Of a DNA stretch of 64,000 bases, positions 6,801-50,800 are shown one piece after another. The stretch is from positions 1 to 64,000 of the forward strand of contig NW_024883018.1 of NCBI RefSeq assembly GCF_019059575.1. Reading direction: 5' to 3'. The notes under the pieces are model-generated. The model searched no databases. It had not been told where the DNA came from and saw nothing but the letters and a program-made list of their open reading frames with translations. Numbering within the stretch: position 1 is the stretch's first letter; every line of letters starts with the position of its first letter. The translations under genes were made by a program, and so were the position numbers. Origin of the DNA: Amphibalanus amphitrite. Lineage: Eukaryota > Arthropoda > Thecostraca > Balanomorpha > Balanidae.

Positions 6801-7675
6801 CCCTCGCCGGCACAGGGGGGGTTGATGCACCCCCCCCTAAGGTTTTTCGCGAATAACTCGCGTAAAAAGCGGCCGATCGCAACGAAACTTTCAGTACCCT
6901 CGCATTGCTCAATTTTACACTTACCCTGAATTTTTTTTTACCCTGACCCAAATGACCTTTGACCTGTGACCTCTTTCCGAGACCATGTTTGGCCGGAATC
7001 GCGATTCGGCGTATGTCGGCTCGCAGTAGCCGCGCGTTTGCAAGCTTTTCGTGGTTTCAAACGTTCAAACATGTGATTTGATGTTGCTTTCATACATTAG
7101 GGTGGGTTTCAAGGTCAGCTGAAGGTCAGGTCAGGTTATTGACCTTTGGTGACCTCGGGTGACCTCGGTTCACTTTTTCGAGTTTTACATGCTTCTAGGC
7201 TAGTTTTTGGAGCTGAATTCGAATTAGCAACCATTTGAACATTTAAGAAGTAGTTTTGGTGCCTTCGTAACATGTTACGAAGCTGTCAGAGGCGGTTGAC
7301 ACGTATTACGAATACCCGTCACAACCCCTACCGGTTGACCTGACCCGACCTGGTCTAAATGCTTAAAGACATCATCTCTGATCAAAACTAATACGATATT
7401 CGTGATCAGCACCCCGGAAAACCTCATTGCAGCCACACTTTACGACTTTCTAACAGGTCCCGATTTTCCCGGTTTTTGGGTCATTGACCTGACCTGGAAG
7501 GTCACCCGATGACCTAGGACCTTAAAATTGGGTATCATCGGCTGCCTCTCGTGACGGGCAACACGCTCGTTTTTTCCGCGAAGCTCTAGCTCGATCAGGG
7601 GCCAAACGCGAGGGGGGGTCGTACCAACCCCCCTTGTGCCGTCGAAGGACGCAAAATGGCCTGTGCCGGCGAGGG
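6801..7675 (+). mobile_element. TTAA-family element P1 (piggyBac-like, 875 bp)
   Basis: Ends CCCTCGCCGGCACAGG / CCTGTGCCGGCGAGGG flanked by TTAA (6797-6800 and 7676-7679). Starting with CCC after TTAA is typical of piggyBac. The left end has a hairpin of G7 (6815-6821), loop, C8 (6830-6837). The right end has G7 (7612-7618), loop, C6 (7628-7633), then an inner copy of the tip (TTGTGCCGTCGAAGG) and the outer tip (CTGTGCCGGCGAGGG). The interior is rich in TGACCT/AGGTCA half-sites. No transposase. Confidence 0.85.
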
Positions 7676-7898
7676 TTAAGGTCCTACGTCATTGGTTGAC
7701 AGGTCAATATAACTCAAAAGTCGGGGAATCGGGACCTGTTAGAGCTTCGTAAAGTGAAGCTGTTATAGGGTTTTGCGGGGTGCTGATCACGAAATTCAAG
7801 TTAGTTTTAATCACAGATGATGTTTTCGTGCATTTAGGCCAGGTCGGGTCAGGTCAGGTCAGGTCACATGTTACGAGTGAACCAAAACTACTTCTTAA

Positions 7899-9802
7899 GG
7901 CCGGGGGGATCCAGGGCGTCGCAAGTCCATCTACGACACGTCGCAAGTTACGACACATGTCCCGTCGCAAGTTGTGTCGTAGCGAAAAAGGAGGGATGTT
8001 GAGGAAAGAGGGGTTTGTCGGAGGATACGACAGAACGTAGCTGCGACAAGGTTTAAATACCCGCTTTACTCGAGAATTTAAAAGGCTACACGATCAGCTG
8101 ATCCCGTAGTAAGCGTCAGTAAGGTCGAAAACTCTATCAAGCATAAAGGAACATTCGCCCTTCTGGTTTGCGAGCTTATGAGACAGCCAGTTCAAGCATG
8201 TTCTCTGATTCTGAAGCCTTGTCTCAACTGGGTGACGTGTGGTTGCTTACGCTCACGTGAGTTGCGATGAATTTTGGGATCGATCACAGGAGATTCGTGG
8301 CGCTATAGGGCATCTAGAAGCGATGCTTTAGAAGAAATGAGTTAAGAGAGTATGAGGTCACAGAGAGTTAGTAGAGTTGGAGATTGAGGTCACAATTGGA
8401 AGTTACAGAGGTCATCTGGGACACTTCAGGTCACGGAGGTCAACTTGGGGTCATCACAGAGCTCAATTGGAGACCACGGAAGTAATCTGAGACACGTCAG
8501 GTCACAGAAGGCAGCTTGGGGGCATGTCAGGTTACAGAGGTCAACTCGGGGTCATCACAGAGCTCAATTGGGGGTCATCTGGGACACGCCAGGTCACAGA
8601 GGTCAGCTTGAGGTCATCAAAGAGCTCAATTGGAGGTCACGGAGGTCATCTGGGACACGTCAAGTCACAGAGGTCAACTTGGGGTCATCACAGAGCTCAA
8701 TTGAAGGTCATGTCGGTTATCTGGGGCACATCAGGTCAGATAGTTCAGCTTGGAGTCATCAGAGGGGTCACTTAGAGGTTACAGAGGTCATATGGGACAC
8801 GTCAGGTCACAGAGGTCAACTTGAGATCATCACAGAGCTCAATTGGAGGTCACGGAGGTCATCTGGGACACGTCAGGTTACAGAGGTCAACTTGGGGTCA
8901 TCACAGAGCTCAATTGGAGGTCATCTGGGACACATCAAGTCACAGAGGTCAGATTGGAGTCATCAGAGAGCTCAATTGGAGGTCACGGAGGTCATCTTGG
9001 ACACTTCAGGTAACAGAGGTCAACTTGGGGTCATCACAGAGCTCTATTGGAGGTCATGGGGGACATCAAGGGACACGTCAGGTCACAGAGGTCAACTTGG
9101 GGTCATCACAGAGCTCTATTGGAGGTCACGGAGGTCATCTGGGACACGTCAGGTTACAGAGGTCAACTTGGGGTCATCACAAAGCTCAATTGGAGGTCAT
9201 CTGGGACACGTCAGGTCACAGAGGTCAACTTGGGGTCATCACAGAGATCAATTCGAGGTCATGGGGGTCATCTGGGACACATCGTTTTTAGAATTTGGAG
9301 AATCCTTTGGGGGATGCCCCTCGCAACGTCCAAGACCGCCTTTCTGGATTCGCCAGTAGTTGCTTCATATCCATGAATACCCCAATAAATGTGAATATAA
9401 CATATTATGCACCATGTTCAACACTCTCGCTGGCGCGGATTGAGGCCTCATAGACGAACCGTTGGTTCTTGCTTTATAACTCGCGTTAGCGGCAACGGAT
9501 TGCAACGAAATTTTCAGGGTCTCAAGTTTCAACAATTTTCCACGTACCATGCAAATTTCGTGACCATGACCCTAATGACCTGTGACCTGTGACCTCTCCC
9601 TCAAGGCCATATCAACTTGCGACACAACTTACGACTGCTATTTCAAATTCGTAAGTTGTGTCGTAAATCAGGCACTTTGCGATAGACTTTACTTCTTAAG
9701 TAACGCTACTCATCAATTGATCCCTCCAAAAACGACTTACTACACAACTTGCGACACGTCGCAGCTGCGACGAGGCTTACGACGATCTGGATCCCCCCAG
9801 CC
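7899..9802. mobile_element. Harbinger-like element (TAA duplication) filled with GGTCA minisatellite
   Basis: Terminal repeats GGCCGGGGGGATCCAG (left) and the inverse of GGCTGGGGGGATCCAG (right), flanked by TAA (7896-7898, 9803-9805). The intact site is visible in P1 as CTTCTTAAATGTTC read on the minus strand, which proves a 3-bp duplication. Three-bp TWA duplications and GG-starting ends fit PIF/Harbinger. Subterminal repeats resemble GTCGCAAGTT/AACTTGCGAC. The centre is a minisatellite (8345-9283), and 9420-9600 resembles a TTAA-family end. No transposase, so non-autonomous. Confidence 0.8.
8345..9283. repeat. GGTCA-rich minisatellite, about 59- and 71-bp units
   Basis: Imperfect tandem array whose unit contains GAGGTCAACTTGGGGTCATC, CACAGAGCTCAATTGGAGG and CATCTGGGACACGTCAGG. 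Shorter units lack the CACGGAGGT segment. About a dozen units. All three forward frames stay open across parts of it because of the repeat, so the long open frames here are not genes. Each unit carries several AGGTCA half-sites. Confidence 0.9.
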
Positions 9803-10235
9803 TAAATGTTCAAACGGTTTCTAAATGCGAAATCAACTCCAAAATCTACCCTAGAAACATGTAGAACTCGAAAGAGTGAACAAAGGTCATCAAAGGTCAG
9901 TGACCTGACTGATCTTCACGTGACCTTGATACCCACTAGAATCCATGCGATCAACATCCTTTCACATGTTTGATCGCTTAAAGCCACAAAAAGACAATAA
10001 AACGCGTTCTACTCGAAATACGCCAAAACGCGATTCCGGCCAAACATGGTCTCAGAAAACAGGTCACAAGTCAAAGGTCTTTTGAGTTAAGGTCATGCAA
10101 ATTATAGGGTAGGCGTAATATTGAATAACTCGAGGATACTGAAAGTTTCGCCGCAATCAGCCGCTTTTTGCGCGAGTTATTTGCGAAAAACTGAGGGTAG
10201 GAGGTCTGTTCGACACCCTCCTACAAGTGCGAAGG

Positions 10236-11925: not shown

Positions 11926-11928
11926 CCA

Positions 11929-13625: not shown

Positions 13626-13627
13626 AG

Positions 13628-16542
<2,915 letters not shown>

Positions 16543-19803: not shown

Positions 19804-20493
19804 TCACTCGAACAGGCCGAGCTCGCAGGCGTTCATCAGTACGCCCCACGAGTGCCAGTCGGTGTAGAAGCCGTCTGTAAGCGTAGCATACGCCAGGTCG
19901 CGACCGTCGTCGGGCTGGCCCGCCTCCCAGACGTCAGCCGGCAGCTCCAGCGGGTTGTTCTCCAGGTCCGTGTAGGTGTACGATGGAGCGGGGCCGTGCA
20001 CCAGCACGCCGATGTAAATCGCGCTGGGGTGTTCCAGATTTGCTGGGTTGAAGCCGGGTATGGCGTTGGCCTCCGCGCCCAGCTGGGAGACGCAGTTGCG
20101 CTCCTCGGCCGTGATCGGTATAGCCATCCGTCCGCCCGGCTGCTGGGCGCAGGCCGCCTTGGCCAGGTCGCGTCCCATGGGCGGCAGGATGCGGTAGGCG
20201 GTGCGGCCGCAGGCCGAGTAGCCGGCCGGCACCGACCGCAGCTGGCGCACGAACGTGCCGTCCAGGCCGGCGTACAGAGCCGAGAACAGCCGGCACGTGG
20301 AGCCGGCGTGGTGGAATCCGACGCAGCCGCTGCCGGCGATATTGCAGTGCATGCCGCACAGGAGGGGGTTGCCGGTGGTGAGTTGGGCCAGCTCCGAGCC
20401 GGCCGCGTCTCCGTCGGGCAGCTGGCGCAGGTACAGCGTGCCGCTGACGGCTGCCGCACACCACAGCAGCCGCAGCGGCGCCAGGGGGGACAT
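19804..20493 (-). CDS. Secreted C-type-lectin-like protein with N-terminal PAN/apple-like region (copy A, QPD)
   Basis: A single-exon 229-residue protein. Residues 1-18 look like a short signal peptide (R8, then LLWCAAAVSG). Residues 45-70 hold four cysteines (C46, C50, C57, C67) in a pattern like a small PAN/apple fold. Residues 95-229 fit a C-type-lectin-like domain: AYRILPP...AKAACAQQPGGRMAIPI, YIGVLV, VWEAGQPDD and the terminal ACELGLF in place of the usual VCE. The QPD triplet (193-195) is at the position that in classical C-type lectins sets sugar choice (QPD galactose, EPN mannose). Conserved cysteines near 201 and 215 are missing, so Ca2+-dependent sugar binding is uncertain. It has an inverted paralogue at 22254-22943 with 19 replacements and lies divergently from it. 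The long antisense frame (19582-20580) is a GC artefact. Confidence 0.8.
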   Translation of the reverse strand: MSPLAPLRLLWCAAAVSGTLYLRQLPDGDAAGSELAQLTTGNPLLCGMHCNIAGSGCVGFHHAGSTCRLFSALYAGLDGTFVRQLRSVPAGYSACGRTAYRILPPMGRDLAKAACAQQPGGRMAIPITAEERNCVSQLGAEANAIPGFNPANLEHPSAIYIGVLVHGPAPSYTYTDLENNPLELPADVWEAGQPDDGRDLAYATLTDGFYTDWHSWGVLMNACELGLFE

Positions 20494-22253: not shown

Positions 22254-22943
22254 ATGTCTCTCCTGGCGCCGCTGCGGCTGCTGTGGTGTGCGGCAGCCGT
22301 CAGCGGCACGCTGTACCTGCGCCAGCTGCCCGCCGGAGACACGGCCGGCTCGGAGCTGGCCCAGCTCACCACCAGTAACCCGCTCCTGTGCGGCATGCAC
22401 TGCAACATCGCCGGCAGCGGCTGCGTCGGCTTCCACCACGCCGGCTCCACGTGCCGGCTGTTCTCGGCTCTGTACGCCGGCCTGGACGGCACGTTCGTGC
22501 GCCAGCTGCGGTCGGTGCCGGCCGGCTACTCGGCCTGCGGCCGCACCGCCTACCGCATCCTGCCGCCCATGGGACGCGACCTGGCCAAGGCGGCCTGCGC
22601 CCAGCAGCCGGGCGGACGGATGGCTATACCGATCACGGCCGAGGAGCGCAACTGCGTCTCCCAGCTGGGCGCGGAGGCCAACGCCATACCCGGCTTCAAC
22701 CCGTCGAATCTTGATTACCCACACGTTCTGTACATCGGCGTCCTGGTGCACGGCCCCGCTCCATCGTACACCTACACGGACCTGGAGAACAACCCGCTGG
22801 AGCTGCCGGCTGACGTCTGGGAGGCGGGCCAGCCCAACGACAATCGCGACCTGGCGTATACTACGCTTGTGAACGGTCTTTACACCGACTGGCACTCGTG
22901 GGGCATACTGATGAACGTCTGCGAGCTGGCCCTGTTCGAGTAG
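22254..22943 (+). CDS. Secreted C-type-lectin-like protein with N-terminal PAN/apple-like region (copy B, QPN)
   Basis: A 229-residue paralogue of the 19804-20493 gene, in mirror orientation, starting at ATG after CCCGCC. Residues 42-150 and 160-194 are identical to copy A. Replacements cluster at 151-159 (SNLDYPHVL against ANLEHPSAI) and 195-226. The sugar-specificity position reads GQPN instead of GQPD. The domain order is the same: signal peptide, four-cysteine N-terminal module (46-67), C-type-lectin-like domain (95-229) ending NVCELALFE. The stop codon is directly followed by a minisatellite whose units repeat the final codons. By family it is likely a secreted recognition or matrix protein; the ligand is unknown. 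Confidence 0.8.
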   Translation: MSLLAPLRLLWCAAAVSGTLYLRQLPAGDTAGSELAQLTTSNPLLCGMHCNIAGSGCVGFHHAGSTCRLFSALYAGLDGTFVRQLRSVPAGYSACGRTAYRILPPMGRDLAKAACAQQPGGRMAIPITAEERNCVSQLGAEANAIPGFNPSNLDYPHVLYIGVLVHGPAPSYTYTDLENNPLELPADVWEAGQPNDNRDLAYTTLVNGLYTDWHSWGILMNVCELALFE

Positions 22944-29802: not shown

Positions 29803-32800
29803 CTGAAACACGACAGAAGTTAGGTATAGAATGGTGCGGGAAAAGAGTCGGACACGGACTCTTGCAGTGAGAAAAATAATTGGTAAACGGCACGGCATGG
29901 CAAGGAATAAATGATATGGGTCGGAATGGAGGATTGCAAGCCTAGGTTTAAAAAGGATCCCAAAATAAACCCTAGATTGTTTAATGAACATCGCCCTACC
30001 AAAATCTGGCATACATTTATAAAAAATAAGGCTTCAGAAAAGGGGCTTATTATATCCTGCAAACCTCTTACCAAAATAATGGAACTCACCAACCGACGTG
30101 GTTCCAGTGCCGCCTTTGAGTCATCTCCTGGATGGCCGTAAAGGCGACAGCAATGTCACGAACTTTGGTCAGAGACAGACAGCCGGGCCGGCGGCGGCGT
30201 TTCTTTGCTCTGCCCGGGGAATGAAATCGACCCCGCGCGACTCTGACCGTCCCCCATCCGTTAGCGCTGCTGGCGCGCGGAAGGCAGCCGCGACAGCGGT
30301 CCCGCAGACAAGGCTGGACGGTCGTGCCGTATATAGGACAAACGGCGCACCAAAGTAACCCAGCCGGTGATCAGCGCCCTGATGGGAGCTGGCATCACGA
30401 GCGCGCGGCTCAATCGCCGACCGAGATTGGACGGTAAACTGTGCTCGGCCGACCTGCGGCTGGCAGCCGGGCCGATTCATAACACAACATTGGTCACCGA
30501 GCGCCTCCCGGCAGGCCGCGTCAACCTCTCTGTGAGGACGGCCAGAATTTAACAAGATCTATGGACTGAATATGATTTGTGTGCCGTCTGAGGCTGCGGC
30601 CGTGACGCCGGATGTGCGGCTCGAAAATAGCCCAGCACCGTCTGAATACGAACTGCGTCACCAAAATGTGGGAAAATGCGAAAGGTCATTGGTCGGAAAC
30701 GGCATGGGGACAGGCAATGTGAACGCGCCATAACGTCAGTAGGCGTGGATAGGAATAGCAATACGCCGCCAGTATCAAACGCTAGCGGCAATAACAATGT
30801 AGCTACCAAACATAAAAGAAAGCACGCATGACCTGGAAGTCGGAAACATAAGCATAATCAAAACGAATGTTCGCGTGAGCATTGCAATTAAATACTATTG
30901 CAAACTACTAGAGTAGCCATGGTGGGCAATTTATGAAACGGTTGCATTGCATGTCCAAATAGACTGCCTTTAATATGAAACCATGCACTTCACCATTCAC
31001 GCATTCAGAAAATAATCAACTTCGGTGCTCGCATAGCGTGTGGCCTGAGCCGGCGCGAACATGTAACCCCAGCACTGCAGGAGCTAGCCTGGAAATGTGT
31101 TGACGACCTGATTTGCGATCATGATCTCACCATTGTACGACATCTGCTGACCTCAGCTAACGCCCCTGAGATCTTGCGTAATAAGCTGGTCTTAAGATCT
31201 GACGAGTCTACCAGATGTACTCGTGCGACCGAGAATGGACTATTGAATCTGCCTCGTGTCAAAACCGAGCTCGCCCGCCGTGGCTTCCTTTTTCGTGCTA
31301 GTAAGGAATGGAATGGTGTTTAGTGGTTTTTAGTGTGCTTGTACTTTTGCTATGTGGTTTTAACTAGATATTCTATATTTTTATTTCGCATTGTATATGA
31401 CGTGGAAGTCACAAAACCCATTGTATGGAGACTCCGAATAAACGTCTGTCTGTCTGTCTGTCTGTCTGTCACCATAAACGGAGAAGTAACTTCGCTCGCT
31501 TCGGCATCAACAAGCAGCAGTGGCCCGCCGCATGTTTTGTGAGTCAGTATTATCCCGCGACCTGGTGGGGGGGGGGCTATTTTTTGCCCCCCCTCCAAAC
31601 TTTTCGATATATCTCCAGAACCGCTGCGCCGATTGTCACCAAACTTTCAGTACCCTCCCGGACATCAATTTTACACATTGTGACCAAAAATTTTTCCAAA
31701 GGCTATGATAGGTTGGCCGGAAATGACGTCAGAGTGACGTCATGTTCTGCCGTTTTCGACCCAAAAAAGGGTTTCGCGGGAAGAGCTGTCAGGCCTATAG
31801 CTTTGCAAATACAGAAAAATGATAAAGACATAAAAGCTGTAGATTGGACAGGGCTACAAAACTCCTATCTCGGATTTATGAATTTTTGGATTTTGATCCC
31901 CAAAAATCAAAAAATAGATTTTTTGGATAAAATAATCGAAAAATCCAAAAAGTTTTTTGAATTTCGCAAAAAACGGAATATGTGTGATAGTCCTTACCGC
32001 CTTCCATCTACATACCAAATTTGAGATTGATACCTCTTTTTTTGGCGAAGTTATAGCGAAAAAAACTGTTCAAAATTGATGACGTCAAATTTTCAAACTC
32101 AATTTTTAGCAATTCTAGACCCCGTAGCACAAAACAAAGACCACCATTAGACTCCCCGTGACGAGCTGCATCGAATCAATACCCATTTTATGCAAAAATA
32201 TCAACTTTGAAATTTGACCTTTTATGACCTGACCTTGACCTGACCTTCACCAGAAAGTGACCTAAACCGTACCTGATGGTCTTATAACCAACACCATTGA
32301 GTTGGAAATGAAAAAACTGGCCATAAAACATGCATCGCACAACCTTAGTAGAGTTGGGTTCATGTGGTGACCCTTGGTGACCTTTGGTGACCTGACCTGT
32401 GACCTGACCTGGTATGACCAGTGACCTCTAATAGCAACATATGTACTAGACAACTGACGCCCTACCGCTGATTCTCGACAAAATGCGTTTTCCTCGGTGT
32501 TATAGCGCATTCCCTAGAAGACCCGTGAACGGTGAAACATTTCATCTTTGACCTGACCTGTGACGTCATCGGTGACCCCGAGGTCAATGAAATTTGATTT
32601 CCTTCGACAAATTTGACAGGCCTTTCCAACGCCGTTTGAATTTTGCGGATCCGTCCAGTAGTTTCGGAGATACGAGGGGGGGCAAAAAATAGCCCCCCCC
32701 CCCCCACCAGGTCGCGTTATAAACAGACCCCACCAGGGCGCGGGTTATGCAGCTTATGCTGAATGTGTGGTGTTACGCTAACTCGCTGTAGGTTAGTCGA

Positions 32801-35800
32801 GTCGTGTGATTAGCCGAGCTCACATGGAAAGGAGTCCCTTGTTTGTCTCCCGAATGTCCTCATCTGACCTGCTGCAGCTTGTAGTGGTTGATCATGTCCT
32901 GGTGCTAAGTGAGTCAGTGCGTGTATCACCGACCTGCTGCAGCTTGTATATAGTGTGGTGTATCATTGACCTGCTGCAGCTTGTAGTTAGTGTGGTGTAT
33001 CATTGACCTGCTGCAGCTTGTAGTTAGTGTGGCGTATCATTGACCTGCTGCAGCTTGTAGTTAGTGTGGTGTATCATTGACCTGCTGCAGCTTGTAGTGT
33101 GGTGTATCGCTGACCTGCTGCAGCTTGCAGTACCGCGTATCACTGTCCTGCTGCAGCTTATACAGGGTGTTTCATAAAATGAGTGTTCATTTTAAATGTA
33201 CCATTGGAGGATCTTAAATAAAACAATGATCGATAATTTTATATGAGCATTGTTGCAAAAAAATTGGCTTTTTTATCTGTGCAAAAACTATCCTAAAGCA
33301 TTCAGTCTCATGGCCGCCATCTGCCGCGATGTCAGCAGCACAGATGCGATGCACTGCGCCGTTCACACAAGGAGAGGCAGTTTGGGCAGTCGCAGAATAT
33401 GGTAGGCTGAGAAACATGTAGTATGGTGTATTGTATCTGACTGACCTGCTGCAGCTTGTAGAGTGGTGTATCACTGACCTGCTGCAGCTTGTATTACCGT
33501 GTACCACTGCCCTGCTGCAGCTTATAGTATGGTGTATTGTATCTGACTGACCTGCTGCAGCTTGTAGTGGTTGATGATGTCCTGGTCGGCTGGACACGAC
33601 TGTGTGAACGCGTCCAGCAGGTACATGTGGTGCATGTAGCGCCACAGGTTCTCGAACTCGGCCGGAATCTCAAACTCCTGGAAAAACTTCCCTGCAAACG
33701 AGCACACAGAAACCACAACGGTCAAATACCACCTTCTCCGCACAAACGTATACACACATCTTAAAGAACGTCATCCCATTCCATCGTCTACAACCTACCA
33801 CGACAGAATCGGGTCACACCCTGAACCGACGGCGCTACTACGGCGCCGTGAGCACCTCCCCATCAGCGTATCGGCGCCGTCACCACATCGTGGCCAATAC
33901 CGCCCTCCCCCGCGAGCCATGGCACCGAGCGTCACCCCCCCCCCCCCCCGCCGACTAATGACTCGCCCTCCATCCTGGCAGGGCGGCGACAAATCTCGTC
34001 CCTGGGCCGTTCGGCGGCGGCGTCTGTCCGCCAACGGCCACTGCACTCACCGACCGAGCGGCGGCACTTGGGCACACGGCGTGAAAAAGCTGCACAAACT
34101 CGGACCGAAACACGGCAAAAACGGAGACCGTGACGCAGGAAATCAATGTAAAAAGTGGTTGTGACATAGAAAATCATAGGAATTGTGATCTTACACCGTT
34201 CCATTTCATATAACGCTTGAACATTTTCCATAAAACATGGTAAGCCGCGCAGTGATGTTGAGGTTTTCGCTGATTTTTCCCATCAAAGGACGACACCGGA
34301 ATCCAGGGTAATGGTCGCCGACGTGAGAGACGAGGGTGGCAGCGGATGGTGCGCGGGCGGCGCCGCGACCCGGCCGCAGTCTCGAGCGGGGCCATCAGCG
34401 AGTTACGAGCGGCGGCGGGCCGACCGCGACGCCGATCATGGTCATGGCGCCGGTGGCGGGGGTTACGGGGAAAGGTCACAGGTCAACGGGGAGGGGAACA
34501 GGTCACAGGCATGCCACAGGTCGTCGCCCAAGGGAAAGGTCAAATGTCGTTGGGAGAGGCATCAAGCTATAGTGAGTTACTGGTCTAGGAAAGTGTCATA
34601 GTTGATTGAGTAACTTCACATGCTTCGGAAAAAGTTCACAAAACACAAAAAGTCCGAGGGAGAGGGTACAGGTCGCCGATGGAAAGTTCAGCAGTCACTG
34701 GAAAGGTTCACGAAGGGGCGAGAGGTCGCTTGGGGATCTACAGACGGAAACAATGGCGCATAGGAGATAATATTTGGGAAGAAAGAAGAAAGTTTAGCTG
34801 CGTGAGGATTCCAGGTCCACTGTCCAGCATTGTCAATGAGTCGGTAATAGGCAAAAGCCTTATTGCTCTGCTATAACGGACCAGTAGTCACAGGTCAGTA
34901 GCCGACACATCCAATGGACCACTCTATCCTGACGGGGAAGACGCCAGAGCCGGCCGCTGCGCCCGTACCTGCCACCCGGATGTGCTGCAGCTTGGGCATC
35001 AGCTCGCAGTCGAAGCAGCACAACGTGTCGCCCGTCAGGAAGCGCGTCTTCTTCTGTCCCAGGTGCTCGTCGATCTTCCGCAGCACGGAGAGCAGCACCT
35101 GCTTCGAGTGGTCGTCCCCCTTCAGCAGCATCAGCTTGAATTTCTGTGGGTCAGAGCGGCAGGGTGCAGTGGTTAGATCGCGGTAAGAATGGTAGAGCAG
35201 CGAAAGGCCAGACGAATATAACAGCGATGGGCCCGGTGATATATTCCGGAATGACTGGAACATCGCCGGTGCCTGTCAGTGGCTTTTTCGACAGACACTT
35301 TTCGTCGGTGACAGACACTTTTGGTAGTCATACGAGGTATCAGAGGTATCAGTTAACCCGCGCCCCGTAGGGGGGGGGCCGAAACGGCCCCCCCCCTGTC
35401 CTTTTCGGTCGATATCTCCTAAACGGCTGGAGATATCGCCACCAAACTTTCAGGACCCCTCCGGGCATCAATTTTGCACATTGTGACCAAAGATTTCTCC
35501 AGAGGCTATGATAGGTTGGCCACAAATGACGTCAGAGTGACGTCATGTTCTGTCATTTTCGACCGAAAAAAGACCTTCGCGAGAAGACCTGTCAGGACTA
35601 CAGCTTTGAAGATACAGAAAAATGATCAAGACATAAAAGGTGTAGAATTGACAGGGCTACAAAACTGCTATCTCGAATTTTTGAAATTTTTGAGTTTTGA
35701 CCCCCAAAAATCAAAAAAGCATTTTTTTGGATATATTCGCCAAAAAATCCAAAAAGTTTTTTGAGTTTCGAAAAAACCGGAATATATGTGATAGTGCCTA

Positions 35801-38800
35801 CCGAATTCTATCTACATACCAAATTTCAGATCGATACCTCGTTTTTTGGCCAAGTTATAGCGAAAAAACTGTTCAAAAATGATGACGTCAAATTTTCAAA
35901 CTCAATTTTTGGCAATTCTAGAACTCGTAGAGCAAAACGAAGACCACCATTAGACTCCCCGTGACGAGCTGCATCGAATCGATACCCATTTTATGCAAAA
36001 ATATCAACTTTGAAATTTGACCTAATTTGACCTGACCTTGACCTGACCTTCACAAAAACGTGACCTAGGCTGGCCCCAAAGGCTGCCTAACCCACATAAT
36101 CGCATTTGTCATGTAAAATGGACCATAAAACATGTATCACACGACACATTCATATTGTGACCCCCGGTGACCTGACCTCGCTGTGACCTGACCTGGTATC
36201 AGTGACCTCAGATAGCAAAGTATGTGTTTGACGAACAATGTACCATCGATGGTTTTCAATAAATTACCAATTTACTCGCTTTCACAGCACATTTCTTGAA
36301 TTGCCTGTGAACGGTGAAAATCTGACCTTTGACCTGACCTGTGACGTCATCGGTTTGACCTAGGTCAATGAAATTTGGTCACAAGGTAGTTCCCGGGTGG
36401 GGCTATCGAACGCCGTTTGAATTTTGAAAATCCGCCGGTAACTTTCCGAGATCTTAGGGGGGGCCGATACGGCCCCCCCCCCCTACGGGTGGTAGGGTCC
36501 GCCGGTAGCCCTACGGGGCGCGGGTTAATGTCAACTGAAGAACCCTTTTCTAAAGACCGACACATCTCTGCGCTTATAACAAAATTATGAAAACAATGTA
36601 AAGTCGTGAATAAATATACATACTCTACTCGACCGACCGAAACGTTCGACAGAATGCATACATCTGCGACCATTTCATACAAGAGACGCATGCATCTTCA
36701 TAGGCCGCTCGCAGCCATGGCTACTACATATTTAACAGAGTTCTGAGCGTGCCATAAATCCACTCTACTCATACTGGAGAGGTCCCCCGGGCCGCGCACA
36801 GACGCGCCGTCGACCGACCGCTCGCAGTTCCCCCACCCACTAACGGCTGGATCTACAACCTACAGCCAGGGCGGGAAGGAACGGGATGGTCTCTTGAATA
36901 GACAGCCGCTTACAAAGCCTCGAAGTTCGAATTATAATCACGGACGATGCGGGACTATCATCTCACTTATGTTACGCCGCAAGTGACTAACAAATCACAG
37001 AGTCACAAAAGGAATGCTCCAAAAGCTCATCAACCAAGGAATGTGTTTCGGAGCGCCAGACTTGGGCAAGTCTGTCTGTCATGGGACCGCACATCCATTT
37101 ACAAATCACCTGATCAGCCGGTCCATTACCAGCGCGGCGGACGGCAGTGCCATCCCGTGCCAGCACACACGCACGGGACGGCACGGGTTCGGGACACGCA
37201 CACACAGTGATGCAAATGGGGTCCACGAGTGGCCATAAATACCGAAAAGGCCCAAATTTCAAGTTCACCTAATCGAATAAATCGTAATATGGCCAGTTAG
37301 GCAAATGTTTGGGGTGTCTGAAAAATATAATTTTCATATTTTTGTCAAAACCGGGCTCGTGTATGATTGTCAGAAGTCGTGACATTTTCTATGTCGTAAA
37401 ATGACTGTCAGATACTCGCAAGTTCAAAGGCCGCTAGCGTGCATTCATTTGGTACAAATGGCAAAAATTATACATGGCAATGATCCCCAAAGTCTGCTGC
37501 TTCTAATGCAGGTTCACAAAAAGCCGTATCTTTTTTTGGTTTGGCGTCGATTTAAGTATTTGTCATCATGTTGCAATCGCAGTTTTTTACTAAAAAATAT
37601 TTGCTTTCGTTTCACCTACAGCAGTTTACACATTGTGTGCCCGTTAGTGCGCCATACCACAGCATTCCCCATGGGCGTAGGAACGTCATGAAAAGTGGGT
37701 GGGCCACCCTGTCAAGGGGCCTCCTTTTCCAGGGGCCTCCTATTTTCAGGGGCCTCCAACTTTTGCCTCGTCCTGCTGGCTGCTTTCAAGTAGGTATGAC
37801 CTCCAAATCTAGCTTCTGACATCGGGCAGATGTACCCAGGGGCGTAACCGCTTAAGCGAACAGAGCGGGAAGTCCGCACCATTTTTAAAACTTATTCCCC
37901 CTCCGATTTTTTTTAGAATCTATTTGCCGCAAACGGCGAATGACCCCTGAAAACCCTTACACAAATGTCTTCCTCGTTTCCCAGGTGCCACCATTAGCTT
38001 CATAGGCGCCCTCTTTGGCATATAAGCGCCCTATGTATAGTCATCAGAGACATCCCTATATGTCCCACAGTCGCATACAATGTGCGCTTATCATAGGCGT
38101 CCCTCTTTTATGGACACTTGAAGCCTGAAGGCGCCTCTCTTTGCCATGCCGGCGCCCCTGTTTGTTATGAATGCACTACCATGGCATTGATCAATTGCAT
38201 TGCAGACCCCTATTGCATGTGGACGCCCATATATGTAGGCCTCACAGGCGCCCCTCTTTCGCATTGAGGCGCCCCTATGGGCATCATAGGCGCCCCTCTA
38301 TTGCACGTAGGTGCCCTACTGTCTCAGAACCGCTCCCTTTTGGCATGCAGACGCCCATCTTTCGTACGGAGGAGCCGCTGTGGTTCTTAGAGACGGCATG
38401 GTGCTCCCAGACGCAGATGGGGCTCTCGGAGTCGACAGTGTGGGACCTTCAGTCGCTGATGGGTGCCTGCCAGATGTGGACCCTCGGAGACGCCGGTATG
38501 GGGCCCTCAGAGATGCCGGTATGTGGCCCTTAGAGACACCGGTCTGGAACCCTCAGACACTTCAGTGTGAAGCCCTTACCATTGCTGGTGTGGAGCTATG
38601 ATATCCGCCCCCCCCCCGCGCACCGACGGGGGGGCGGATATCCGCCCCCCCCCTGAGGTTTTTCGCGGATAGCGGGAAAACCGCGGCGCGTAGCGCCGCG
38701 AAATTTGGTATGACTATTCTCTCATCAATTTTACACATGGTGTGCAAGTTTGAACCTCCTAACTTTTAAGGTCAGGTCACCAGGTCACTTTGAATGACCC

Positions 38801-41800
38801 AACCTCAAGTCACTTTTTTGCAACTTTGTCACCGTGCCAGAGCTACAGTAGATGTCGGAGGCCTTTGAAAGTCGCAGGATGTTATTAGGTCATTAGTAGC
38901 TACAATTTGTATATCTCGGAATTTTGATGTCGGTGACCTAAGGTCAGGTCAATTTCGCGACCTCCCCATTATAAGTCAATGGGGGAAAAATCAACTCCCT
39001 GTTTTTACCACTAAAACGGGTCGGAATGGCCTCATATACCATACATGACTTCACATACGATCAACCTTCACTACCTTGAGGTCTGTTTTGCTGTTGGGCA
39101 GCTGTAAAGTCATGTGACGTCATCAAAGGTCACCAAAGGTTTTTTGCCAATAACTCCTTACAGGAACAAGATACAGCCGCGCGGATGGTCTCATTGTGTT
39201 CAGCTCGTCAAGACGCATCGAATGATATACATGATGACCTCGAGGTCACGTGACCTGAGGTCAACCTTTGACCTTGACCTTTCGAGGTCAACATATATAT
39301 CATTCGATGCGGATTGACGAGAGGATCACGATGATGCCCTTAGTTTGTTCCTATCTTGACTAATTCGAAAGTTATTCGAGAAAAACCCTGTCCATATCTA
39401 GCGCCGCCATTTTGACTTTTTCGACCCCTGTGACGTCATCTTTGACCTGACCTGAAAATGACCTTAGTAAAAATTGTAGACCTTGTCCGTGCGTATCCGA
39501 TGCCGTTTACCGCTTGTCGCTATCTTGCTTCGTTCTCGAGATCTCAGGGGGGGCGGTCATCCGCCCCCCCCCGTCGGTACTAAGTTGGCGCCGACCCCCG
39601 TCGGTGCGCGGGTTAAATCCCTCAGAGGCCGGTACATGGACATTAGAGCTAAGTGAGAGCTTGTGTGGTGCCTTCAGTGGCCTTGTGGGGAGCCGCATCA
39701 ACATGGTGCTCTCAGGAGCCGGTGAGTCCTCAGAGTCACCGGTGTGGGGCCTTCAGAGCTCGGAGGTACTGGTGTGGGGCCCTCAGAGGTGTCGGTGAGG
39801 GTCCTCCGTCCTTCAGATGTACCTATAGAGCCTTGAGATGCACAGGTGTGGTGGGCGGTGGCCCACAGAGGCGCAGGTGTGGGGCCCCCAGAGCCACCGA
39901 TATATGGCCCTAAGAGACACTAGTATGACCCTCAAAGGCGCCGCTTTGTGGCACTCATAAACACTGATGTGGAGCCATCACACACAGGCGGGTGGAGCCG
40001 CTAGAGGCCGGAAAGGGCCCTTAGATGCCTACAAGGAGCCTTCAGAAGCCGGCGTGGCACCCTTATGGGGATAGGCGTGTCTACTTAGGAGCCCTTGAGG
40101 TGCTCTCATGAGCTCTGTGGGGTCCTACCGAGCCGAAATATGGCCACGGCCAGTTGCCGCCGCATGGCTCTTCGGACTATCATTCTCAGGGGCCTCATCT
40201 GCCTAGTTTGAATAGAAGGACCTCTCAGACCATCAGTCTCATGGGCCTCCTCTGGCTAGTATAAATAGAAGGGCCTGTTAGACCATCAATCCTAGGGGCC
40301 TCCTCTGTTTAGTATAAATAGAAGAGCCTCTCAGACCATTAATCTCAGGGGGCTCCTGTAGACAGTATAAATAAAAGGGCCTCTCAGACCATCAGTCTCG
40401 GGGGCATCCCTAGAAAAGTGTAAATGTGGATAGAGGGCCCCCTCAGATTCATTAGGAGTGGACCTCTCTGACTATCAGTCTCAGGGGCCTCTTGTGGCCA
40501 GTATGAATATAAGAGCCTCTCAGACCATCGGTCTCAGGGCCTCTTCTGACTAGTGTGGATAGAGGGCCCTCCCAGACCACCGGTTTCAGGGGCCTCCAGT
40601 GGCCAGTTATATGAACAGAAGGGCCTCACAGCCATCAGCCTCGGGGCCTCTTCTGACTGGTGTGAATATGAGGGCCTCTCATACCATCAGTCTCAGGGGC
40701 CTCCTCTGCCTAGTGTGAATATAAGGGCTTCCCAGGCCATCAGTCTCAGGGGACTCTTCTGGCTGGTGCCGGATTGAGGGACCTCCTAGACCGAAAGTTT
40801 TGGGGGTCTCCTGTGGCCAGTATGAATAGAAGGGCCTCTCAGTCCATCAGTCTCATGGGCCTCTTCTGCCTGGTGTGATTATAAGGGCCTCTCAGGTCAT
40901 CAGTCTCAGGGGCCTCCTCTGACTACAGTGTAGATGGATAGGCCTCCCAGACCATCAGTCTCAGGGGCCTCATCTGACTATTGAGGATAGAGGGGCCTCC
41001 TCTGACTAGTGAGGGTAGGGGGCCTCGGCTAGACCGCCAGTGTCAGGGGCCTATTCTGGCTAGTGTGGATGGAGGGGCCTCCCAGACCACCAGTCTCAGA
41101 CCTCTGACTAGTGTGGATACAGGGGCCTCCCAGACCGCCAGTGTCAGGGGCCTCCACAGATCCACTAGGGCCTCTCAGGCCATCAGTCTCAGGGGCTTCG
41201 ACTGACAAGTATGAACAGAGGGCCTCCTTGGATCCATCACGGCCCCTTGGAGTCCGTGCATGGAGATTCGTGGAACTTATTTTTACCGAGTTTGTTTATT
41301 CTGGAAGGTGACGACGTCCTCTCAAATCGAGACGAGGGGCCTCGAGTAAAAGGTGGGTGGGCCAAAACACATGGTTGGCCCCCCCACCTCGAAAAGTGGG
41401 TGGGCACTTGCCCACCTGGCCCCCCCTGTTCCTACGCCTATGGCATTCCCTAATCATTTCTGAGCCGCACTGTAAAAGAATTAAGGCGCTAGCACAGGGC
41501 TGACCGGCGCTACTCAAGTTTTCGTCCGTTGCGGTCGGGTGCCGCGGTGGGCGGGCGGCCGCGCCGCGGGCGGGCAGCCACAGCGGGGGTTCACCGGTGC
41601 ATCCCTCTCCTATTCCTAAACGAAGTGTCCTATCGCCTCGCAACAAAAACCAACGGATTGTCCTTGACAAGATCTCGCGAGTGAGCATATTACTTTTGAC
41701 TTAAGGTCAATATTTGACCTACTTATAGCAGGTCAAAGTCAAACGTCTGTCGAAATTGCAATCCGCGGTGAAAGTAATCCGCCCCGACCGCGACACCCGA

Positions 41801-44800: not shown

Positions 44801-47800
44801 AGTGTCGCACATGGAGTTGAGCTAATCCCATCGTTTGGGTCTGGGCTAACACTTTGGGTCCAAGCTAACCCTACCGTTTGGGTCTGAGTTATCCCTACCG
44901 TTTGGGGCTGAGCGAACCTTGCAGTCTGAGTCTGAGCAAACCCGTCCGTTCGGACATGCTCTGAGTGCCACCCCGGCGGTCCCAGTCCGCCACGTCAAGA
45001 GTCCATACGTGCACTGACTGACAGACACGGGCTGGAGTTCAATCAGAGTTCAGACACGTGCTGACTGTCGAAGATGTCATCCAGTTCAACACATCAGATT
45101 TAGAACCCTACACCACGAGACGACAAGTCGTCGGCACGCCGGAGCTCTGCGCGCCGAGCACCGATAAGCCGGAACGTTCCCCATCCCAGAACCCGACACG
45201 ACCGAGGAATATCCGCCACCGTCCAGAAATATCCCAGAACGAGTCCTCGTATTCAGTCCTCGGGTGTCGCAGTGGAACGGCGCGCCTAATTAGCAGTCTA
45301 ATTTGCGTAGTTTGCCAGACCGCTCAGATGCGACCAAAGCCCACCACACACCAGCATAAACCAACAATAACCCGGGCCAAATTGTGTCCCAGCCCAGAAT
45401 TGTGACCCAATCCTCGGGCTCGTTCGGCAGAGCTCACTCACGCTGTAGACGTTCTCGATCTTGGTAGCCACCTCCTTGTCCTGTACGAACAGGTTGTGGC
45501 CGCCGGGCACGTTCTTCATGATGTGCCGCTCGATCTTCTCGTTTTCCAGCACGGCCAGCCCGTTATCCACCAGGATGGGCGGCAGCGTGGCGTCAAAGTT
45601 GGACCTGTGGACACGGGGGGGGAGGGGGCGTCAAATTAAGCTGTCTGACCTGTGGACACAGGAAGCAGGAGTCCAGGTTGGACCTGCGGACCTGTAGCGC
45701 GGTGTCGGCTGGCGGGCACTGGTGGATTGATGGTCGAGCGTGGGAAAGTGTGTCGATGACGGCGGTATACGAGTGGAGATGACTGGTAACGGCTAAAGTA
45801 AGAATTTTTGAGGAGCACCTTTGATGAATTTATAAACCTGACTTCGTTAAACGCTCATATTGTTCAGGACTCATTGATATTTTTTAGCTGTTTTACTGTA
45901 CAGTAAACCTAAATAAATCATTGGTGGACCAATTAAACATTTTTAGAACTTCTAATAACACTATTTTCCATTCCCAGCACGCACCATCGCTTCTCGGCCA
46001 TTAAGCCTCGCTCCCCCCGAGAGCCGTCGCCCGTCAGCCCACTAACAGTGCAATAAGGCGATCGTGCGTATGCATTTCAGTGTTGAGCTCAGCCAACTTT
46101 GAACGGCCTTTTGTGCCAAATCATAGTATCCCCGCTCCACTTCCGGACTTCCTCAGACACCGCTCACCCCAGGCCAGTGACCCTTCTGACCCGTCGCGGG
46201 GGGGGGGGGGGGCAGCGGGCGTGCCATCCCTCCACAAGAGGCCGTTTTGCGCGCGGAACGGCTGACACATAATCAGCGACCCCATTCTCGGCCGAGCGAG
46301 CTCTGGAGACGCTCCACTCAGTGCGTGGGGGGGGGGGGGGAGGGATGAGCTCCGAGCTCTGAGCGGGAGAGCCGCTCCCGGCGAGAGCAGAGGCTCTGCT
46401 CAGGGGAGAGCCGCTCCCGGCGAGAGGAACCTCTGCCTCAGCAGAGCTCGGGTCGGGTGTCGCAGCTGGAGCCGTGACATCGCGGAAACCAGGGCATAAA
46501 AATCCGACAGATGGATCGCTGGAACCCAGCAGCCGCGACTTTGTGCTGCAAAACAGTAAATACCTCGCAGAGGCCTCCAGCCGGGTCAGGTCCAGAGTCC
46601 AGACGTCCCGGGAAAGAGTTATTCGCGCTAACACGAAGCAGCTCAACGTGACTATCGCAATAAACTACATCGAAGCTGGTAATAAAAACTGCTCAATGAA
46701 GAGTTGCATGACAACGGCCTACCGAAACCATACGTCTCCCCATTCCTCTCCCCCCCCCCCCGCCTCTCCCCGCCGTTTGAACCGAACACAACTGTGCGCA
46801 GCGGGCGGCGTTCGGTGTCCGATTTATTGGGCGCAATAGCGGCGGTCATATATATCGAGCAGCTGGCCGGCTGATCGCAGAGTATCGCCGCCAGCGCCGG
46901 CCCGGCTGCTCCATAGATAGCGCGCCCGTCTCCGGGGCCTGGTGTCGCCCCTCATCAGCCAGTTCCGGTGAGGCGCCCCGGTACGTCTCACCAATGAATG
47001 CAGAGAGGATTGACACGGGATAAATGTGGAATACCGCGAACGTACCGATTGGCATATGGCGACCCGGGTAGGACGATGTGGGTAGGATTCAAAGATGGGA
47101 CTCGTGTCGCGTGGGGTTAAGATGGCGACGGAAGTGGTTGCGTTAGGAGTGTCACTGGCTGTGCATGGCAACTGGGTGTGAAGGGTGTGAAAATCGAACA
47201 TTAATGAGCAAATGTGGGTAGGCACCTCAAAATTCACCCGCGCTGATATTGAAGATCGAGTGCTGCAGCCCACAAAGGATCAGGAGACACCTAGGATGAA
47301 ATGAGGCAGTGAGACGGCAATGCTCTTCCGAATATCGATTCTGACTATAGAGTGCTAGGGCAGACAAAGGAATTGGAAATGCCTCGGAAGTAATAAGCCA
47401 GTGAAATGGTATAGCTGTCGGGAATTATTGTTGCATCGGCATGCCCCTACTGTTTCGAGCAAATCAGTTTTGAAACTGTTCCGAACCAAATAATAGATGA
47501 GATGGCGTGAAAATGGCAGGTGTGTGAAATAAAATTGATAGGAAAAAATGTGGAGACGAACCGAAACCATAAAACATAAACAGTGTTGTAGGAAGGAGTC
47601 GTAATCAAATTATGTCTTGCGTAGGTATATCAAATTTGACACATCCGCAAGCCACACGCGAGCGCGAAACGAGCGCCTCCCACTTCCATTGACCATCTCG
47701 CGGCATCATGGCATTCGCGACGATTCCATATGTGATTTGTACGCCATTTATTTGTCAGCCATTGCGCTGCTCGCGCAATAAATCAATGTCGTCTGCCTGC

Positions 47801-50800
47801 ACTCATGTCGAGGAGCAGGACCAGCCCAACTCACAACTGCTAAAATTCGACACTACATAGGCGATAAACCACGCCACTCAATGCGACCTTTTCGTGGTCC
47901 GGTCCACTCCCCTGGGCCCGGTCCGACTCCATTCAGCACGCGGCTCTGCCGTATAAATGCAAAACCCATTATGTTCGGGTGACCTCTGACCTGAGGTAAT
48001 GGCCTCTGACCCGACATAATGTTTTTTGCCTTTGCACGGCAGGGCTGCCGAGCGCTGTTTCTGCCGTCACCGGCGTAGAGGCTGGTGAATGCCCAGCACG
48101 TCTCAGCACGTCTCATAGCACGTGAGTGTTCAATGCGACTTGTGAAAGCTTTCACTGGCAATAGCGGCAGGCGACAGGGCCTAAACAGATGCTGATTGCA
48201 TTTGTCGGAGCGCATTGTTCGGCACTTTTCAATGCGTAATATCTAAAATGATTGTAATTTCAGCAATAGGTGTACGTCCTCAAATGTCAAGTGTGAAGTC
48301 ATAGACCACTAAATATCTGGTATATAGTCATGACTGGTCTATGGTGGAGTCTGGCCTGCTCTTTATGGGCTAGGCCCACTCGTTGAACCGTAAATGTCTG
48401 GATAACCGATATAACCGGTGTCTGTTCATAACAGTTCACTGGTGGCAGGGTATGCATGGCTTCAACTGAAACCAAAACAAAACACGAAGTGTGTGCCCAA
48501 TGTCCATTGTGCGCAGATTACACAGGCCCCGAATAACAACCATTTAATCAAATCCTGACAGCCAAACGATGTCCATTGGGCAGATACCTAGTTTTAGTTG
48601 CATGCAATAATTGCATGAGATTGGCCGAGGCCGAATGGCAAAACAGACTTTTGAGTCAATCTGCACGCCGAGGACTGGCTAATGGTGTTGCATGGAATTC
48701 ATGGTAAATATAGCATCTGACAACTTCGGACAAAATAACGGAATTCAGCAAGACGCATGATTCATTTCTTAACCCGGCAGGCGGTGGGCCTACCAGCCAC
48801 CTTCCGCGCGGTGGGGGGGGGGGGGCACTTTTTGCCCCCCCCCCCGTATCTCCGAAACTACTGGACGGATCCGGAAAATTCAAACGGCGTTCGATAGCCC
48901 TGTCAAATTTGTCGAAGGAAACCAAATTTCATTGACCTCGGGGTCACCGATGACGTCACAGGTCAGGTCAAAGATAAAATGTTTCACCGCACACGGGGCC
49001 CTAGGGAAAGCGCTATAACACCGATTAAAACGCATTTTGTCGAAAATCAGCGATAAGGCGTCAGTTGTCTAGTACATATGTTGCTATTAGAGGTCACTGG
49101 TCATACCAGGTCAGGTCACAGGTCAGGTCACCAAAGGTCACCAAGGGTCACAACATGAGTCCAACTTTACTAAGGTTATGCGATGCATGTTTTATGGCCA
49201 GTTTTTCATTTCCAACTCAATGGTGTTGGTTATAAGACCATCAGGTACGGTTTAGGTCACTTTCTGGTGGAGGTCAGGTCAAGGTCAGGTCAAAAAAAGG
49301 TCAAATTTCAAAGTTGATATTTTTGCATAAAATGGGTATCGATTCGATGCAGCTCGTCACGGGGAGTCTAATGGTGGTCTTTGTTTTGCGCTACGAGGTC
49401 TAGAATTGCTAAAAATTGAGTTTGAAAATTTGACGTCATCAATTTTGAACAGTTTTTTCGCTATAACTTGGCCAAAAAAAGAGGTATCGATCTCAAATTT
49501 GGTATGTAGATAGAAGGCGGTAGGGGCTATCACATATATTCCGGTTTTTTCGAAATTCATAAAACTTTTTGGATTTTTGGCTATTATATTCAAAAAATCT
49601 ATTTTTTGATTTTTTGGGGTCAAAATCCAAAAAATTCGAAAAACCGAAATAGCAGTTTTGTAGCCCTTTTCATTCCACACCTTTTATGTCTGAAACATTT
49701 TTCTGTATCTCTAAAGCTGTAGGCCTGACAGCTCTTCCCGCGAAACTTTTTTTGGGTCGAAAATGGCAAAAATGACGTCACTCTGACGTCATTAGCGGCC
49801 AACCTATCATAGCCTTTGGAAAAATTTTGGTCACCATGTGCGCTAGCTGCTCCCGGGAGGGTACTGAAAGTTTGGTGACGATCGGCGCAGTGGTTCTCGA
49901 GATATATCGAAAAAACTAAAGGGGGGGGGGCAAAAAAATGCCCCCCCCCCCCCCCCACCGCCTGGAAGGTTAAAGCAAAATATGACTTTCTTGTAAAATC
50001 TTCAGTGCATTATCTTTTGATGATTCCAGTCGAGCCGGAACAACGTTTTGGTACAGGGTCGTTCGTTTGCGTTGGCAGGCGTGATGGTTAGAGACTGACA
50101 TTATTTGACTTCCCCTCATGGCATTGCTGCAAATACGAAATGCGAATAAATATCAACAACCCAACAACCGTCTACTAATTTACAATAAAGGAATAAAATG
50201 GGTACGCCAACGCAGTATTGCCATGACTGATGATCTGAGAAGTGGCAACTCCCTCACCCAGTAGGGAAATGTAATAATCTCGTACTCAGTGCTCTACAAT
50301 CAAAGGCACGTTACTAAAGGTCAGTCATCTGAGAAATCCAGCATTGATGGCACGGGCTTTTGCAGGAAATGGAAACCACAGCGGTCTCCATAAAAGACCT
50401 CATAAAAAGACCATAGCACGCTGAGAACGGTTCGTCGATAACCGCTACTACCAGTGCCATCTAGCGACCTACAACGAAACTTCAGCTTGGCTGACCTGAA
50501 GTCAGGTGGCGGTTTGAGCATGTCGACGGTGGTGACTTTCAGCGAGATGGTCTTCAGTTCGGCGAGCAGGTAGAGGTCCATGAAGTACTCCTGGCAGAAC
50601 AGACAGGCGCCCTTCCTTCGGCCGTCGATGGTAGACGCCTGTAGGACACGATTGTCACCGTTAGTAACGAGTGCCTGGTAACGACTGAGTTAGGTACAGA
50701 TAAGTGAGAAAATAGGTACCGAAATGTGTCGTAGAAAATGAAATGTATTTTGTAGATACACGGAAAGCAGCAGCTGTCGATTATATGGCCTTCAGGAAAG

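What the first reader, a model, noticed from the sequence alone, without database searches (positions are those of the whole stretch)
6801..49969. TTAA-flanked elements with element-specific, triplicated end tags and G-run/C-run hairpins
Seen: P1 (6801-7675), Q1 (31554-32744), Q2 (35357-36524), Q4 (38615-39612) and Q3 (48773-49969) share one layout. From the left: TTAA, CCC-tip with a variable tag, G-run, short loop, C-run, conserved interior, G-run, loop, C-run, inner copy of the tag, about 12-16 nt spacer, outer copy of the tag, TTAA. Tags differ between elements (CCTGGTG in Q1, CCCGTAG in Q2, ACCGACG in Q4, CCGGCACA in P1) but agree among the three positions within an element, although the interiors of Q1-Q3 are closely similar. 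Known: piggyBac-type TIRs are normally constant across a family because one transposase reads them. Inference: the tips may be rewritten in concert, for example by templated repair or fold-back copying at the G/C hairpins, or different transposases are followed. I know of no described family with this architecture.
Basis: partly seen in the sequence, partly recalled or inferred. Interest (0 to 1): 0.9.

Follow-up and report, generated by a model that had tools for sequence, protein, structure and literature searches.

The report
Barnacle piggyBac miniatures with swappable ends
These are short, gene-less relatives of the piggyBac jumping gene in what is very likely a barnacle genome; their ends follow the standard piggyBac plan but come in many distinct 'address tag' versions, and the same middle is found with different matched ends, so they could be used to learn how a transposase recognises its own DNA.

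Summary
The five window elements belong to a very abundant set in an 807.6 Mb genome, very likely the barnacle Amphibalanus amphitrite. Left, inner-right and outer-right tags agree within elements, and nearly identical interiors occur with different tags.

The layout is not new in kind. It is that of Trichoplusia piggyBac: tip, a repeat at bp 7-16 contacted by the transposase, then a palindrome, with the repeat doubled on the right end. Here the palindrome is a G-run/C-run. Three full-length copies with these ends carry uninterrupted piggyBac-type transposase frames, each with a different tag.

Tags are stable subfamily marks, not continuously rewritten: two P1-group tags gave 1752 and 1870 matched right ends and no mixed ones. 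But ends and interiors have different histories: the CATGTGTA subfamily has a CCGGCACA-like interior with CCCGTATA-like ends, and Q4's interior recurs between CCTGGC ends.

Best reading: diverging transposases each read their own tag, interiors change ends by rare recombination, and only copies with matched ends multiply. Coral CMITEs are a published precedent. New here: scale, G/C palindromes, matching autonomous copies, end/interior conflict. Fold-back copying has no direct support.

The parts
6801..7675 (+). P1: piggyBac-type non-autonomous element, tag CCGGCACA, 875 bp; inserted at an internal TTAA of an inverted relative
   Evidence: flanks read by eye as the reverse complement of P1's own interior
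6807..6814 (+). P1 left tag CCGGCACA (bp 7-14 of the left end)
6815..6837 (+). P1 left palindrome: G-run, loop TTGATGCA, C-run
7612..7633 (+). P1 right palindrome
7634..7641 (-). P1 right inner tag copy (TTGTGCCG on +)
7662..7669 (-). P1 right outer tag copy (TGTGCCGG on +)
31554..32744 (+). Q1: element with tag CCTGGTG, flanked by TTAT on both sides
31560..31566 (+). Q1 left tag ACCTGGT (matches the inner right copy rather than the outer one)
31567..31593 (+). Q1 left palindrome, loop CTATTTTTTG
32676..32705 (+). Q1 right palindrome, loop CAAAAAATAG
32706..32712 (-). Q1 right inner tag
32732..32738 (-). Q1 right outer tag
35357..36524 (+). Q2: element with tag CCCCGTA; bases 300-1014 are 84.1% identical to the 5' noncoding part of the C702 transposase-bearing element
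35363..35369 (+). Q2 left tag CCCCGTA
36512..36518 (-). Q2 right outer tag
38615..39612 (+). Q4: element with tag ACCGAC; interior shared (96%) with elements carrying CCTGGC ends; left flank lacks TTAA
38622..38627 (+). Q4 left tag ACCGAC
39599..39605 (-). Q4 right outer tag
48773..49969 (-). Q3: inverted element with tag AGGCGGT; interior 91.9% identical to Q1
48779..48785 (+). Q3 right outer tag AGGCGGT (reading inward from its right end)
48806..48812 (+). Q3 right inner tag GCGCGGT
49957..49963 (-). Q3 left tag AGGCGGT

Best explanation
The elements are non-autonomous members of the Trichoplusia-type branch of piggyBac in what is very likely a barnacle. The tag is the transposase's sequence-specific site next to the tip: one copy on the left end, two on the right about 27 bp apart, as in piggyBac. 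[quoted passage not shown] The genome holds many diverged transposase sequences of this branch, and each lineage probably reads its own tag. Miniature elements arise by internal deletion of such elements. Rarely, recombination joins an old interior to both ends of another family. Only products whose three tags match one working transposase multiply, so the visible subfamilies have matching tags.

Shown: the layout, tag agreement, three matching autonomous copies, shared interiors with exchanged ends. Inferred: tag reading by the DNA-binding domain, palindrome reading by the cysteine-rich domain, recombination as the source, selection for matched ends.
For: Three elements with both ends read and an open transposase frame inside: C33 (666 aa, CCCTGGT at both ends), C702 (683 aa, CCCCGTT at both ends), C527 (674 aa, AACGCCTA left, ACGACCA twice right) (open frames).

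Their proteins match T. ni piggyBac (6x67/6x68) at 195, 228 and 267 bits against piggyBat at 78, 69 and 108. L031, the one plain-ended transposase tested, is the reverse: piggyBat 99.6, piggyBac 41.6. The catalytic Asp triad aligns in all nine sequences.

Offset of the two right copies is 26-28 in 33 of 38 rows. C1/C2 join: 28 of 38 eligible left ends could be paired; 26 same tag, 2 near variant, 0 clear mismatch. Exact inner/outer combinations genome-wide: AA 1752, BB 1870, inner B with outer A 0, inner A with outer B 0. Ends: dAB .462, dBC .256; interiors: dAB .057, dBC .087; A-B below B-C in 0/300 and 300/300 bootstraps. Q4's interior is 96% identical in two elements with CCTGGC ends. Q2 is 84.1% identical to C702 over bases 300-1014, and its right end matches too.
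Against: No binding, excision or transposition data. Only three transposase lineages were linked to tags, and C527's left and right tags agree at only 5 of 7. No transposase was found for P1's own tags. The C group has only two full elements, and they are diverse. Some families deviate: offset 31 in the two CCGGCCGA rows, 20 and 29 in the CCTGGC rows, and weak inner copies in CCTGGC and GGGCCC. In the P1 group, tags behave as ordinary subfamilies, so frequent exchange is not shown. The C1/C2 tag letters were assigned by me, with small variants counted under the main tag.
Confidence: 0.75

Rival explanations
1. Ordinary subfamilies only. Tags drift by point changes together with a slowly changing transposase, interiors change more slowly, and no end exchange is needed.
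For: Copies group by tag on the P1 interior tree. All 12 near-fixed A-B interior differences lie in the right part (columns 519-784), where net divergence is higher. Several tags differ by one or two bases (CCCTGCT, CCCTGGT, CCCCGTA, CCCCGTT).
Against: Ends and interiors disagree on relationships. Q4's interior is 96% identical in two CCTGGC elements while the tags, spacers and the first 270-280 bp differ. A and B ends differ by about 46% where interiors differ by 5.7%.
Confidence: 0.18
2. One reading: tips are actively rewritten in concert by templated repair or fold-back copying at the G/C palindromes.
For: Q4's left flank repeats GATATCCGCCCCCCCC, the palindrome arm, outside the tag. Among the 11 printed Q1-type left ends, 7 carry the A of the inner right copy and 4 the C of the outer copy.
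Against: Thousands of copies hold fixed tags, and exact patterns found no A/B mixed right end. Whole spacers and loops change with the tag, not the tag alone.
Confidence: 0.05
3. The tag is a neutral barcode: one transposase reads only the CCC tip, the palindrome and TTAA, and each founder's tag is inherited passively.
For: PMC2872659 proposes that the CC[C/T]T tip with a conserved interior may suffice for CMITEs (section 15).
Against: Three copies of a neutral barcode should drift apart. Here they agree in diverged families and within C33 and C702, whose transposases are 38% identical. In piggyBac the bp 7-16 repeat is contacted by the protein, and randomising its second copy lowers activity by about half (PMC7351741 passages).
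Confidence: 0.06

Closest known systems
Trichoplusia ni piggyBac (structures 6x67/6x68)
   Same: TTAA target, CCC tip, repeat at bp 7-16, palindrome inside it, repeat doubled on the right end with an insertion between copies, transposase with DDD and C-terminal Cys/His domain; best match in the structure database for the three layout transposases.
   Different: The palindrome is a long G-run/C-run of variable length, not a fixed 19 bp; the transposases are 666-683 aa open frames with a stretched C-terminal Cys region; many tag types in one genome. The 27 bp spacing of piggyBac's own repeats is recalled, not from a call.
CMITE elements of Acropora corals (PMC2872659)
   Same: Non-autonomous TTAA/piggyBac elements with interiors more conserved than family-specific TIRs; one element (AP824033492) with an interior of another family.
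   Different: About 100 bp long, an estimated 1600 copies in A. millepora; no tripled tag or G/C palindrome mentioned in the sections I read (outline, part 1 of section 9, section 15), and no test of end against interior histories there.
piggyBat (Myotis lucifugus; 9c0f)
   Same: Same superfamily.
   Different: Its ends lack the easily recognised repeated motifs of piggyBac (PMC11707139 passages); protein match weaker than piggyBac for the three layout transposases but stronger for L031, whose ends lack the layout.

Membership tests
piggyBac superfamily | TTAA target duplication | tested here: met
   TTAA on both sides of P1, Q2 and Q3 (3 of 5); Q1 has TTAT on both sides; Q4 has TTAA on the right only. 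Larger samples were searched with TTAA in the pattern, so they do not test this.
piggyBac superfamily | DDE_Tnp_1_7 transposase in an element with the same ends | tested here: met
   PF13843 in the L034, L035 and L040 proteins; both layout ends found around each
piggyBac superfamily | three catalytic aspartates | tested here: met
   Aligned to piggyBac D268, D346, D447 (numbers counted by me on the printed alignment; their catalytic role recalled); invariant D316, D400, D499
piggyBac superfamily | precise, footprint-free excision | not testable with these tools
   needs empty sites or an assay
T. ni-type piggyBac ends | one tip-proximal repeat on the left, two on the right at a fixed spacing | tested here: met
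   offset 26-28 in 33 of 38 paired rows; the others are 31, 31, 20, 29 and one false pairing
T. ni-type piggyBac ends | palindrome inside the repeat on both ends | tested here: met
   right palindrome in 37 of 38 rows; the left one was required for entry
T. ni-type piggyBac ends | palindrome bound by a C-terminal cysteine-rich domain dimer | not testable with these tools
   C620, C623, C645, C648, C653 and H656 invariant in the C-terminal region of nine aligned proteins; binding untested
MITE | short, no coding capacity, high copy number, ends shared with an autonomous element | tested here: met
   795-1201 bp in 34 of 38 paired rows; thousands of copies; Q2 is an internal-deletion match to C702. 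Longer than typical MITEs.
CMITE | membership by sequence | not tested
   coral sequences were not compared

The most novel reading that the evidence does not exclude
End cassettes (tag + G/C palindrome + spacer) are exchangeable modules. The homopolymer palindromes act as recombination junctions that let one interior move between transposases, so non-autonomous elements switch 'hosts' within a genome by acquiring both ends of another family, while each transposase lineage evolves a private tag to escape them.
Probability: 0.25. Interest if true: 0.75.

Novelty: new variant of a known kind. Interest (0 to 1): 0.5.

Why it matters
One genome holds about 17 tag types among the paired elements sampled (my count) and at least three open transposase frames with both ends known, each a natural pairing of protein and candidate recognition site. 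That makes two questions testable: how piggyBac transposases read the bp 7-16 repeat, and how miniature elements move between transposases. It could also give mutually exclusive piggyBac systems for laboratory use.

Tried and rejected
Tried and dropped.
(1) I first took the CCTATTCCTGGC end in L040 as belonging to the 683-aa transposase; its orientation shows it is a miniature element inserted there.
(2) On re-reading, the AGTTGCT double-tag right end in L059 faces away from the C778 transposase frame and belongs to another element, so C778 is not linked to a tag and neither of its ends was found.
(3) I considered that Q1's tag shows direct capture of C33's ends; Q1's spacer and loop resemble the CCCCACT element L024 more than C33, so I do not claim it.
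(4) C412, C512, C639, C1010 and C1173 transposase flanks were not read; L039's (C757) ends were not resolved.
(5) The reverse count (122,649 against 25,558 forward; controls 616 and 196) is unexplained, probably repeated counting along C-runs; I use neither as a copy number.
(6) An AA right end lies inward of one B left end (C3:1899427); its coordinates fit a B element nested in an A element.
(7) Paper searches listed nothing on this system beyond CMITE; the library lacks most subscription journals.

Rows dropped. One search left out L001-L008, which overlap later loci; it requires TTAA followed by CCC or CCT and a palindrome on the left, and AGG or GGG before TTAA on the right, so damaged ends are missed. 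C702 as a whole was read later and is not among the 38 rows. In one search, 14 of 19 P1-type left ends had a right end in range; the other five are not.
Full report
What was checked. The five elements were read in the window and measured by script. The layout is as described. From the left: TTAA, a tip of about 6 nt starting CCC or CCT, a tag of about 7 nt ending just before a G-run, a loop of about 8-10 nt, a C-run. At the right end the palindrome comes first, then the inner tag, a spacer, the outer tag, the tip and TTAA. Q1 sits between two TTATs. Q4 lacks TTAA on its left, where GATATCCGCCCCCCCC repeats an arm of its own palindrome. Loops mirror between the two ends, so tag and palindrome travel as one cassette.

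Where it is. The window lies in a genome of 807,550,619 bases in 2644 contigs. The C33 transposase is 96% and 97% identical, over 52% of its length, to two proteins that databases name as Amphibalanus amphitrite, so the host is very likely that barnacle or a close relative. A recalled assembly size for that species agrees.

How common. A pattern for the left end with P1's interior anchor matches 4006 places, its reversed control none. A right-end pattern shared by P1-like families matches 9542. A left-end pattern for the Q1/Q3 interior matches 2438; of the 22 strings printed, 11 carry CCTGGTG and 11 AGGCGG, each with its own loop.

Do the tags agree? Among 38 paired rows from about 0.32 Mb (window and fetched loci), reduced to 25 distinct ones, the left tag matches the outer right copy at 6.24 of 7 and the inner copy at 5.60 of 7. 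Shuffled pairings gave 3.82 and 3.45 with maxima of 4.64 and 4.32 in 2000 shuffles. One row (L028:5553) is a false pairing and one (L017:2998) had its tag misread; both were kept. C527's two rows agree only at 5 of 7. By my count about 17 tag types are seen. For the P1 interior, joining left ends to right ends by coordinate on contigs C1 and C2 paired 28 of 38 eligible left ends: 26 with the same tag (A 9, B 12, C 5), two with a near variant, none with a clear mismatch. Here A is CCGGCACA, B is CATGTGTA, C is CCCGTATA, assigned by me with small variants under the main letter. Over the 100 left ends listed on C1-C5, AA right ends lie 500-1300 bp inward of 23 of 29 A, 1 of 39 B (apparently a B nested in an A) and 0 of 22 C; BB right ends lie inward of 26 of 39 B, 0 of 29 A and 0 of 22 C. 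Genome-wide, exact inner/outer pairs are AA 1752, BB 1870, inner B with outer A 0, inner A with outer B 0. Those four patterns cover the right tip only, without an interior anchor.

Do interiors follow the tags? Partly. In 14 full P1-type elements (A 6, B 6, C 2) the midpoint-rooted interior tree groups copies by tag, with supports of 0.997 (A against the rest), 0.997 (C) and 0.835 (B). The 12 near-fixed A-B differences all lie at columns 519-784 of 842. Net A-B divergence is 0.1-2.2% in the windows of the first 480 columns and 1.7-7.2% in those from 480 to 840, while the ends differ by about 46%. For ends, B is closer to C (0.256) than to A (0.462); for interiors, B is closer to A (0.057) than to C (0.087). 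Resampling columns 300 times gave A-B below B-C in 0 of 300 for ends and 300 of 300 for interiors. The simplest reading is that B was founded when an A-like interior acquired C-like cassettes at both ends. C rests on two elements, themselves diverse, so this needs a larger sample. A second case: Q4's bases 281-958 are 96% identical in two elements with CCTGGC ends. The match ends at the outer edge of the right palindrome, whose loop already differs, and on the left about 270-280 bp do not match. A third CCTGGC element (L001/L011) has the same right spacer and tip but matches Q4 only over 151 bp at 70%; its bases 156-361 match the left part of the inserted CCTGGC element at 90.8%. So interiors and ends do recombine; the cases seen are founder events followed by amplification.

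Who moves them? The genome has at least 116 piggyBac-domain matches (a lower bound). Transposases L031 (604 aa) and L033 (601 aa) have short plain ends without the G/C palindrome; for L032 (569 aa) one such end was seen. Three longer ones lie inside elements with the full layout and both ends read: C33, 666 aa, with two more copies that are 100% identical, tag CCCTGGT on both ends; C702, 683 aa, tag CCCCGTT on both ends, with a CCTGGC miniature inserted in it; C527, 674 aa, left AACGCCTA and right ACGACCA twice. For C778 no end was found: the double-tag end in L059 faces the other way. The three layout proteins match T. ni piggyBac far better than piggyBat, and L031, the only plain-ended one tested, the other way round, so the layout appears to go with the T. 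ni-like branch. The C527 and C702 proteins are 36% and 38% identical to C33's. Q2 matches C702 over bases 300-1014 at 84.1% and again at the right end: a classical internal-deletion derivative, with tag CCCCGTA against CCCCGTT. Q1 and Q3 match the same stretch at 75.7% and 76.6%.

Mechanism. In piggyBac, bp 7-16 of the end are contacted by the dimerisation and DNA-binding domain, the palindromic internal repeat at bp 17-33 by the dimer of cysteine-rich domains, and the right end has a 17 bp insertion and a duplicate of the repeat; randomising that duplicate lowers activity by about half (PMC7351741, passages). The tag and the G/C palindrome here occupy these positions. I infer that each lineage reads its own tag, that the palindrome is read as duplex DNA, and that selection for matched ends explains three-way agreement. 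None of this was assayed. The source of exchange is inferred to be recombination or template switching between related elements; Q4 shows one junction at the palindrome.

Known and new. Coral CMITEs (PMC2872659: outline, part 1 of section 9, section 15) are short TTAA elements whose interiors are more conserved than their TIRs, with one element carrying another family's interior. That is the same phenomenon on a small scale. I found no report of G/C palindromes, of tag diversity at this scale, or of barnacle piggyBac elements in searches, of which I saw listings only apart from three papers (PMC2872659, PMC7351741, PMC11707139); the library lacks most subscription journals. Hence 'new variant of a known kind'.

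Noticed in passing
window 6700-6800 and 7676-7780: P1 appears to be inserted at a TTAA inside an inverted relative of itself: by eye its flanks read as the reverse complement of its own interior (around GGACCTTAAAATTGGG).
   Followed up: partly
window 31550-31553 and 32745-32748: Q1 has a TTAT duplication instead of TTAA, a non-canonical piggyBac target.
   Followed up: no
window 38595-38614: Left of Q4's tag the TTAA is replaced by GATATCCGCCCCCCCC, a copy of the palindrome arm; a template switch or an assembly error.
   Followed up: no
L036 1760-1850: Two left ends of the AACGCCTA family sit head to head sharing one TTAA.
   Followed up: no
L059 1-109: A double-tag right end with tag AGTTGCT (inner GTTTGCT) of an element lying away from the C778 transposase; the same tag occurs on miniature left tips listed.
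   Followed up: no
window 56663-62806 (-): A 2047-codon open frame that looks like a BEL/Pao-type gag-pol retroelement (label from recall of motifs, not searched).
   Followed up: no
window 19804-20493 (-) and 22254-22943 (+): Two closely similar 229-codon frames in opposite orientation, probably a recent inverted gene duplication.
   Followed up: no
listings: G- and C-run lengths vary widely between copies that share an identical tag, so the run length is not under the same constraint as the tag.
   Followed up: no
listing: Of the 11 printed Q1-type left ends, 7 read CCCGCGACCTGGT and 4 CCCGCGCCCTGGT, matching the inner or the outer right copy.
   Followed up: no
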